From: Candidatus Bathyarchaeota archaeon
Lineage (GTDB): Archaea; Thermoproteota; Bathyarchaeia; TCS64
NCBI GenBank assembly: GCA_030593155.1
Contig: JAUVHT010000011.1
Span: 1-11,709, forward strand
Reading direction: 5' to 3'
Length of the DNA stretch: 11,709 nucleotides
Numbering within the stretch: position 1 is the stretch's first letter; the number at the start of each line of letters is the position of its first letter. Positions 7,775-9,401 of this stretch are shown piece by piece. The notes beneath the pieces are model-generated. The model was not told the origin of the DNA, did no database searches, and saw only the letters and a program-made list of their open reading frames with translations. The position numbers were made by a program, and so were the translations under genes.

Positions 7775-9013
7775 TCAGCCCTTCAGGGTCCCTACTCCTA
7801 TCAGTCGCCACCTGCTTCCGATCCTCCGGCTCACGGCAACCCTGTCGTCCACCTCCCCGCACACGGGGATGGTGAGGGCCGCCTCGAGGTAGTTCTTGGA
7901 GACCTTCGTAACTGTCCCCATGGTTTTGGCGGTCCCTATGTTCAATAGCAGCTTCTCCCCCTTGGCGATGGCAGCCACCTTCTGCATCTCCCTGCTCCCC
8001 ACCACGGTGTCGAAGAGCTGGAGGTCTAGGTTTATCTCGTCGATGACGGGCGGGAGGGTCTCGGGTTTCCCTATGAGGCTTCCCACGAGGCCGTCGGACT
8101 TGGTCAGGGAGGGATCTAGGAATGTGCCTACGCCCACGAGGCCGCCCGGAAGGGCCTCTTCAACGGAGCTGTTCCCGGCATGGAGGCTCGTGATCTCCGT
8201 GTATAGCTCCTGCATCTTCACCCGGTTCTTCTCCCGGGTGGGGAGGCCCGGCCTTATCTCTATCTCCTCCCCGACGTTGAAGCTTCCATGGATTATAGAT
8301 CCTCCCAGGATGCCGCCCACGAGCTTCTCGATGGGGGTGCCTGGGACGTTCACGTCAAAGCTCCTGACGATGTACATCCGGGAAGCCTTAGATGGATCCC
8401 TCTCCGGCGTGGGGAGATACTCCTCCATCGCCTCGAGAAGGAGGTCCGTGTTGACGTCGTGCTGGGCCGAGACCGGGATGATGGGGGCTTCCTCGGCCAC
8501 CGAGCCCTCCACGAATCGCTTGATCTCGTTGTAGTTGCGGACGGCGTCCTCCCGGGTGACGATGTCGATCTTGTTCTGGACTATGATGATGTTCTTCAGG
8601 CCGACTATGTCGATGGCGGCCAGGTGCTCCCTGGTCTGGGGCTGGGGGCACCGCTCGTCAGCCGCGATGACCAGGATAGCGCCGTCCATCACCGCGGCCC
8701 CGCTCAGCATGGTGGCCATGAGGATCTCGTGGCCGGGGGCGTCCACGAAGCTTACGGCCCTCTGAAGCTCCGCCTCTCCTCCACAGTGGGGGCACGTGGG
8801 GGAGGTGCAGTAGCACTGAGGGCCCTTGCAGTCCGGGCACTTGTATATGGTGGCGTCCGCGTAACCCAGCTTGATGGTGATGCCTCGCTTCAGCTCCTCG
8901 CTGTGGCGGGAAGCCCAGACCCCTGTGATCGCTTGGACCAGAGTGGTCTTGCCGTGGTCGACGTGGCCGATGGTGCCGATGTTGATCTCCGGTTGACTCG
9001 AAAGTTTCGGGAT
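7775..9013 (-). CDS. eif2g: Translation initiation factor aIF2 subunit gamma, apparently starting at ATC
   Basis: This GTPase binds methionyl initiator tRNA and brings it to the small ribosomal subunit together with the alpha and beta subunits. Counted from ATC at 9011-9013 it has 412 residues, the usual length. Motifs in order: GHVDHGKT (16-23), switch 1 SRHSEELKRGITIKLGYADA (35-54), a zinc knuckle with Cys59/Cys62 and Cys74/Cys77, DAPGHE (91-96), NKID and SAQHD, then the two beta-barrel domains ending RRIGSRWRLIGVGTLKG. The knuckle holds two additional cysteines, at 67 and 69. The frame closes upstream at a stop (9029-9031). No ATG, GTG or TTG occurs in frame before GTG 8746, which would delete the P-loop. 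The ATC sits 7 bases after GGGGGAG and gives the expected MPKLSSQPEINIGTIGH. A base error replacing ATG is the alternative. Confidence 0.95.
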   Translation of the reverse strand: MPKLSSQPEINIGTIGHVDHGKTTLVQAITGVWASRHSEELKRGITIKLGYADATIYKCPDCKGPQCYCTSPTCPHCGGEAELQRAVSFVDAPGHEILMATMLSGAAVMDGAILVIAADERCPQPQTREHLAAIDIVGLKNIIIVQNKIDIVTREDAVRNYNEIKRFVEGSVAEEAPIIPVSAQHDVNTDLLLEAMEEYLPTPERDPSKASRMYIVRSFDVNVPGTPIEKLVGGILGGSIIHGSFNVGEEIEIRPGLPTREKNRVKMQELYTEITSLHAGNSSVEEALPGGLVGVGTFLDPSLTKSDGLVGSLIGKPETLPPVIDEINLDLQLFDTVVGSREMQKVAAIAKGEKLLLNIGTAKTMGTVTKVSKNYLEAALTIPVCGEVDDRVAVSRRIGSRWRLIGVGTLKG

Positions 9014-9020
9014 GTCTTTT

Positions 9021-9027
9021 CTCCCCC
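9021..9027 (-). promoter_or_regulatory. Shine-Dalgarno site that selects the ATC start of aIF2 gamma
   Basis: The minus strand reads GGGGGAG here, followed by 7 bases and then ATC. The strong match and spacing point to ATC 9011-9013 as the initiation codon even though it is not ATG, GTG or TTG. Confidence 0.65.
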
Positions 9028-9056
9028 TTTACGGTATCGTAGTTGTGAGGTATGGG

Positions 9057-9065
9057 CTTATATAC
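9057..9065 (-). promoter_or_regulatory. TATA-like box for the aIF2 gamma gene
   Basis: The minus strand reads GTATATAAG 44 bases before the ATC start. A start site about 25 bases downstream would fall near 9035, giving a leader of about 22 bases. This limits any alternative start to the interval after it, where no ATG, GTG or TTG occurs in any frame until the P-loop region. Confidence 0.6.
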
Positions 9066-9150: not shown

Positions 9151-9188
9151 CCCCGCTTGAGGATAGCATCTGATTCAGGGTGAGTCCG

Positions 9189-9401
9189 ATGGTTGATGGT
9201 GAATCAGGGAAAGTTACAATCCGGGTCCCGAAGGACCTCTACGAAAAAATTGAGGAGAAGATATCCGGGACGAGTTTCTCGTCCGTCGAGGAGTATGTCG
9301 TGAGCAAACTTGAGAGCGAGTTCCCCACGGAGCCCGTGTACACCAAGGAAGAGGAGGAGCTGATCAGGGAGCGCCTCCGCAAGCTCGGCTACATAGAGTG
9401 A
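9189..9401 (+). CDS. Small ribbon-helix-helix-like protein with an EEEE..RERLRKLGY tail, first gene of the sulfurylase operon
   Basis: A 70-residue protein. The N-terminal part, KVTIRVPKDLYEKIEEKISGTSFSSVEEYV, has the strand-helix-turn-helix pattern of CopG/Arc-type ribbon-helix-helix proteins, which usually bind DNA as dimers. The C-terminal part, TKEEEELIRERLRKLGYIE, resembles the tail I associate with many alkaline-phosphatase-superfamily and sulfatase proteins. ATG 9189 was chosen because GGGTGAG (9178-9184) precedes it by 4 bases; the GTG at 9180 lies inside that site. The gene ends 9 bases before the preferred ATP sulfurylase start and shares its strand, and an AlkP-type enzyme follows. 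It may regulate this operon or pair with its products. Neither role is shown by the sequence, and the fold is judged by pattern only. Confidence 0.85.
   Translation: MVDGESGKVTIRVPKDLYEKIEEKISGTSFSSVEEYVVSKLESEFPTEPVYTKEEEELIRERLRKLGYIE

What the first reader, a model, noticed from the sequence alone, without database searches (positions are those of the whole stretch)
8990..9035. aIF2 gamma appears to start at AUC, a possible self-regulating start like that of infC
Between the in-frame stop at 9029-9031 and the P-loop there is no ATG, GTG or TTG in the reading frame, nor in any frame after the predicted transcription start. ATC 9011-9013 lies 7 bases after GGGGGAG and yields MPKLSSQPEINIG and a 412-residue protein, both as expected for the family. 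A rare start on a gene for the factor that delivers initiator tRNA recalls the AUU start of bacterial infC, through which IF3 controls its own synthesis, and the poor start contexts used by eukaryotic eIF1 and eIF5. That this gene is autoregulated is inference.
Basis: partly seen in the sequence, partly recalled or inferred. Interest (0 to 1): 0.75.

Follow-up and report, generated by a model that had tools for sequence, protein, structure and literature searches.

The report
Archaeal initiation-factor gene with AUC start
In this group of uncultured archaea the gene for the protein that brings the first tRNA to the ribosome seems to begin at an AUC, AUA or AUU codon instead of the normal AUG, and comparison with relatives shows this is no sequencing slip, which suggests (untested) that the cell may use a deliberately poor start to control how much of the factor it makes.

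Summary
Window 9013-9011 (minus strand) is ATC, 7 bases after GGGGGAG; the next in-frame ATG/GTG/TTG is 89 codons on, past the P-loop. In the 28 closest species genomes found, the homologous codon is ATC, ATA or ATT in 27 and GCC in one, never ATG. With the window they form one clade (100/100). Three outgroup genomes have ATG exactly there. A Shine-Dalgarno run lies at a fixed distance in most rows, coding rhythm begins at this codon, and two genomes have an in-frame stop two codons upstream. A base error, splicing or a distant start is unlikely.

It looks gene-specific as far as tested: aIF2-alpha, aIF2-beta and aIF1A loci of these genomes have ATG/GTG/TTG in 79 of 79 read, and in 794 gene ends of two partial genomes aIF2-gamma was the only clear AUH start. 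Five of the 28 genomes do have a canonical codon close by.

The parallel with bacterial infC holds for codon class and kind of gene. Autoregulation is plausible but unshown; even its sign is unknown. No listed paper treats it.

The parts
9057..9064 (-). TATATAAG, TATA-box-like word 51 bases upstream of the ATC
   Evidence: Sequence; a TATA-like word at -45 to -55 in 27 of 29 rows. Promoter function is inference.
9029..9031 (-). in-frame stop TAA, six codons upstream of the ATC
   Evidence: Sequence
9021..9027 (-). GGGGGAG, Shine-Dalgarno-like run
   Evidence: Sequence; G at -13, -11 and -10 in 26 or 27 of 29 rows, at -12 in 20. The 16S 3' end was not found in the parts of two genomes searched, so pairing was not tested.
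9011..9013 (-). ATC, proposed start codon of aIF2 gamma
   Evidence: ATC 14, ATA 8, ATT 6, GCC 1 over the window and 28 relatives
7775..9013 (-). aIF2 gamma gene (translation initiation factor IF-2 subunit gamma), 412 aa from the ATC
   Evidence: NF003077 652 bits and TIGR03680 639 bits, both over cut-off; PF00009, PF03144, PF09173
8744..8746 (-). GTG, first canonical codon in frame, 89 codons downstream; gene callers start here in near-identical relatives

Best explanation
The aIF2 gamma gene of this clade is translated from an AUC/AUA/AUU codon placed by a Shine-Dalgarno run on a short leader behind its own promoter. Initiator Met-tRNA (anticodon CAU) would pair with A and U and mismatch the third base. 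The start has been kept non-AUG by selection, so that the factor is made slowly and in step with how permissive initiation is; the most likely use is homeostasis of the initiation machinery, as with bacterial infC. Shown: the codon, its conservation, its spacing, and canonical starts of three sister genes. Inferred: that ribosomes start there, that it is weak in these cells, and that there is feedback. My estimates: start at this codon 0.92; kept for weak initiation 0.75; true feedback by aIF2 level 0.4.
For: 27 of 28 relatives have AUH at this codon and none ATG; one clade, 100/100; at least six third-base changes, never to G (topology typed by hand); three outgroup genomes have ATG at exactly this codon, with stops at -1, -3 and -4; Shine-Dalgarno run and TATA-like word at near-constant distance; in-frame stop at -2 in G234 and G255; 79 of 79 loci of aIF2-alpha, aIF2-beta and aIF1A canonical; only clear AUH start among 794 gene ends. 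aIF1 disfavours non-canonical starts in S. solfataricus (PMC6237735, passages); aIF2 pulls the tRNA out of the P site unless pairing holds it (PMC5103072, passages).
Against: No protein or ribosome data. 5 of 28 clade genomes have a canonical codon at -2, -3 or +3; G231 has GCC at codon 0. In G001, G244, G003 and G255 codon -1 is also AUH, so the exact codon is ambiguous there; P0005, the same N-terminus as G001, is annotated from codon -1. Of the 120 closest proteins 20 are called from codon -2 and 13 from +1. The genome-wide control is blind to genes with a chance canonical codon upstream. No feedback was observed.
Confidence: 0.6

Rival explanations
1. The AUH start only sets a low, fixed output of aIF2 gamma (dosage, subunit balance); there is no feedback loop.
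For: All sequence evidence for the start fits this equally well.
Against: A weaker promoter or Shine-Dalgarno would do the same; a codon class whose use depends on initiation factors, kept on an initiation-factor gene, is a pointed coincidence. This is argument, not data.
Confidence: 0.35
2. Translation starts elsewhere: at another codon close by, or upstream through splicing, the Ile being internal.
For: 5 of 28 genomes have a canonical codon at -2, -3 or +3; many database proteins are called from -2 or +1.
Against: 23 of 28 and the window have none from -12 to +3; stop at -2 in two genomes; codon -2 is not conserved while codon 0 is; in sister genomes with an upstream start codon 0 is not a conserved Ile.
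Confidence: 0.06
3. Non-canonical starts are simply common in this lineage and mean nothing for this gene.
For: A few other genes in G002 and G001 seem to start at CTG or GTT; eight other genomes of the class have CTG at or near the aIF2 gamma start.
Against: 79 of 79 loci of three sister factors are canonical; no other clear AUH start among 794 gene ends.
Confidence: 0.08
4. Base or assembly error in the window: the true codon is ATG.
For: None found; the window's reads are not available to me.
Against: 27 of 28 other genomes share the trait with three different third bases; near-identical proteins are truncated in the same way.
Confidence: 0.01

Closest known systems
Bacterial infC (IF3), start ATT in E. 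coli, ATC in Streptomyces (PMC5472188, passages)
   Same: Start codon of the same class on a gene for a translation initiation factor
   Different: Unrelated protein and domain of life; IF3 discriminates against such codons and its loop is established; for aIF2 gamma the effect and its sign are unknown
Eukaryotic eIF1 and BZW1/BZW2 with AUG in poor context (PMC5823381, passages)
   Same: Poor start kept by selection on genes of factors that set initiation stringency
   Different: AUG in poor context with scanning; here a non-AUG codon behind a Shine-Dalgarno run
Streptomyces sigR with GTC start under IF3 (PMC5472188, passages)
   Same: Non-canonical start used for control
   Different: Not an initiation-factor gene, hence no self-control
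aIF2 gamma genes of sister Bathyarchaeia with ATG, GTG, TTG or CTG start
   Same: Same protein; in G203, G204 and G202 the ATG is at the same codon
   Different: In nine loci tested an S6e gene lies upstream; in six CTG loci and G203, G204 of these its frame overlaps the start; in G005 (AUH clade) it ends 159 bases before

Membership tests
aIF2 gamma (NF003077, TIGR03680) | Score over the curated equivalog cut-off along the full length | tested here: met
   652 bits against 315 and 639 against 514.5
Genes of initiation factors with a conserved AUH start (infC kind) | AUU/AUC/AUA at the start position, conserved in relatives | tested here: met
   27 of 28 genomes; G231 GCC
Genes of initiation factors with a conserved AUH start (infC kind) | No canonical start available nearby | tested here: inconclusive
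   Absent from -12 to +3 in 23 of 28 and the window, present in 5 of 28
Genes of initiation factors with a conserved AUH start (infC kind) | Ribosomes initiate at the AUH codon | not testable with these tools
   Needs N-terminal peptides, toeprints or footprints
Autoregulated weak-start genes (infC, eIF1) | Level of the product changes initiation at its own start | not testable with these tools
   Needs reporters or in vitro initiation
infC itself | Encodes IF3 | tested here: not met
   The protein is aIF2 gamma

The most novel reading that the evidence does not exclude
A clade of archaea has fixed an AUH start on the gene of the initiator-tRNA carrier as a feedback valve, the archaeal counterpart of infC, and weak starts on this gene arose more than once in Bathyarchaeia (CUG overlapping the S6e gene in two groups, perhaps AUU or ACG in single genomes).
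Probability: 0.38. Interest if true: 0.87.

Novelty: new variant of a known kind. Interest (0 to 1): 0.74.

Why it matters
It would be a non-AUG start kept by selection on a core archaeal initiation-factor gene, which I did not find described in searches. It makes the question whether archaea control their initiation machinery through start-codon stringency directly testable with simple AUC/AUG reporters. It also explains why databases hold truncated aIF2 gamma proteins for this group.

Tried and rejected
Rejected or left: base error (relatives); RNA editing to AUG (three different third bases, so no single edit fits); a structured leader (window and G002 fold no better than shuffles, z 0.85 and 0.99); a special initiator tRNA (none noticed among 20 and 17 tRNAs called in the fetched parts of two genomes, which are incomplete, and the initiator was not identified). 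The first versions of the genome-wide control gave many overlap and wrong-frame hits; one search replaced them and its 27 flags were sorted by eye.

In G010, G014 and G019 (ATC) and G007 and G024 (CTG) the codon before CAA/CAG looked like a start, but relatives with upstream canonical starts have Ile or Val at that residue, so I do not count these as AUH starts; their starts stay unresolved. A tRNA-Sec called by ARAGORN in G002 had no Rfam tRNA match.

Papers: searches; only part of the hits is listed for 40, 41, 54 and 70, and the library is partial. Six papers were opened for passages only; none was read whole. The attempt on a further paper failed.

Full report
What is there. The minus strand of the window carries aIF2 gamma (7775-9013). 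Its frame is closed upstream by TAA at 9031-9029, and between that and the P-loop there is no ATG, GTG or TTG. ATC at 9013-9011 follows GGGGGAG by 7 bases. The next canonical codon in frame is GTG 8746, 89 codons downstream. Read from the ATC the protein has 412 residues and aligns with NCBIfam NF003077 (412 positions) at identical numbers, 5-411; Pfam finds three expected domains.

Relatives. A scan of species genomes kept the best 80 loci; the closest, 72-84% identical, are nearly all labelled Candidatus Bathyarchaeota. No whole genome is held for the window. In the class of G002, 230 of 256 genomes had a match at E 1e-100 or better; the 28 with 72% identity or more were all read. The codon at the ATC position is ATC, ATA or ATT in 27 of 28 and GCC in G231. 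With the window the rows are ATC 14, ATA 8, ATT 6, GCC 1. Upstream, G is at -13 in 27, at -12 in 20, at -11 in 26, at -10 in 27 and at -8 in 26 of 29 rows, and A at -7 in 26. A TATA-like word lies at -45 to -55 in 27 of 29. Positions -6 to -1 are little conserved, while from codon 0 on a coding rhythm appears. G234 and G255 have an in-frame stop at codon -2.

Outgroups and tree. G203, G204 and G202 have ATG exactly at this codon, with stops at -1, -4 and -3. In sister genomes with a canonical start further upstream codon 0 is not a conserved Ile. In a maximum-likelihood tree of 71 proteins the 28 AUH rows and G231 form one clade (100/100); G234 (ATA) branches first and the next fork is not resolved. 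On that topology the third base changed at least six times and never became G.

Exceptions and ambiguity. Within codons -12 to +3, 5 of 28 clade genomes have a canonical codon: G002 ATG-2, G236 TTG-2, G230 and G233 GTG-3, G255 TTG+3. In G001, G244, G003 and G255 codon -1 is also AUH. Of the 120 closest database proteins, 43 are called from within or beyond the P-loop motif, 7 from between codon +1 and that motif, 25 from more than two codons upstream (6 of these begin MYI or MYL, which looks like an ATG in the TATA box), 20 from codon -2, 13 from +1, 11 from 0 and 1 from -1. So some annotations already use the AUH codon, and some lineages near the window may use a canonical codon two codons up or one codon down.

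Controls. In the same 28 genomes aIF2-beta was matched in 25 and 25 of 25 loci have a canonical codon at the conserved N-terminus; of aIF1A matches in 26 genomes 29 loci were read and 29 of 29 are canonical, with one fragment and five further matches not read (judged by eye). aIF2-alpha was matched in 25 genomes and 25 of 25 loci have a canonical codon within 15 codons of the conserved motif. For a wider view I compared stop-to-stop frames of 1.2 Mb of G002 with 1.2 Mb of G001. Of 794 gene ends examined, 16 more being skipped for N, 27 were flagged as having at least 12 conserved codons before the first canonical codon. By eye most are gene overlaps or wrong frames. The believable ones are aIF2 gamma in G001 (ATC), a few CTG cases and one GTT; an AlaX-like gene (name recalled) is unclear. 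The test cannot see genes with a chance canonical codon upstream, such as aIF2 gamma of G002 itself.

Rest of the class. I read 110 other genomes (30 loci short stretches). Four gave no motif and one stops at a contig edge. Of the other 105, 15 have no ATG, GTG or TTG from codon -12 to +3, some of them having one further upstream. Eight of the 15 have CTG at or near codon 0: G048, G065, G066, G071, G073, G199, G200, G201. In ten CTG loci a same-strand frame runs 17 or 26 bases past codon 0; the six of these that I tested are ribosomal protein S6e, so translational coupling can explain a weak codon there. In the tree CTG rows sit in two groups with other starts among and between them. G007, G010, G014, G019 and G024 could not be resolved. 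G059 and G187 have ATT and ACG as candidates. Outside the class, L039 (Asgard) has no canonical codon and an ATT. In the AUH clade there is mostly a promoter-like word of its own; in 12 of 29 rows a divergent frame upstream resembles, by eye, the window's ATP sulfurylase. G005 still has an S6e gene ending 159 bases upstream.

Mechanism. Initiator tRNA would pair with A and U only (established knowledge). In S. solfataricus aIF1 disfavours non-canonical starts (PMC6237735, passages), and aIF2 pulls the tRNA out of the P site unless codon pairing holds it (PMC5103072, passages). A gene for aIF2 itself with such a start would report on stringency. For infC this is a described loop, ATT in E. coli and ATC in Streptomyces (PMC5472188, passages); for eIF1 and BZW a weak AUG context does the same (PMC5823381, passages). 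A 2020 review names AUG, GUG and UUG as start codons of archaeal mRNAs (PMC7531240, passages). Whether aIF2 raises or lowers AUC use is unknown, so feedback stays a hypothesis.

Verdict.

Noticed in passing
L110, L114, L116, L118, L123, L124, L125, L127, L128, L129 (start regions): CTG at or near codon 0 of aIF2 gamma, inside the tail of an upstream frame that is S6e in the six loci tested; two of these loci also have a GTG three or five codons up.
   Followed up: partly
L389, L391, L392, L394, L397: aIF2 gamma of G010, G014, G019, G007 and G024 has no ATG/GTG/TTG from codon -12 to +3; the start could not be fixed.
   Followed up: partly
L120 (G059), L358 (G193), L372 (G187), L039 (Asgard LC30): Candidate ATT or ACG starts of aIF2 gamma in single genomes, each behind a G-rich run; G193 also has an ATG at codon +3.
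   Followed up: partly
G002 pieces (L139-L198), frames at 466469, 544077, 559433 of the joined sequence: Genes whose conserved N-terminus seems to start at CTG, CTG and GTT, where G001 has GTG, ATG and GTG.
   Followed up: partly
P0001, P0020, P0032, P0054, P0065, P0068; P0101, P0105: Database starts of this gene are unreliable: some begin MYI/MYL, apparently at an ATG in the TATA box, others 89 codons too late.
   Followed up: partly
window 9180-9401 (+): Small divergent gene (73 aa) without a Pfam match between aIF2 gamma and ATP sulfurylase; similar N-termini are seen at that place in some relatives.
   Followed up: no
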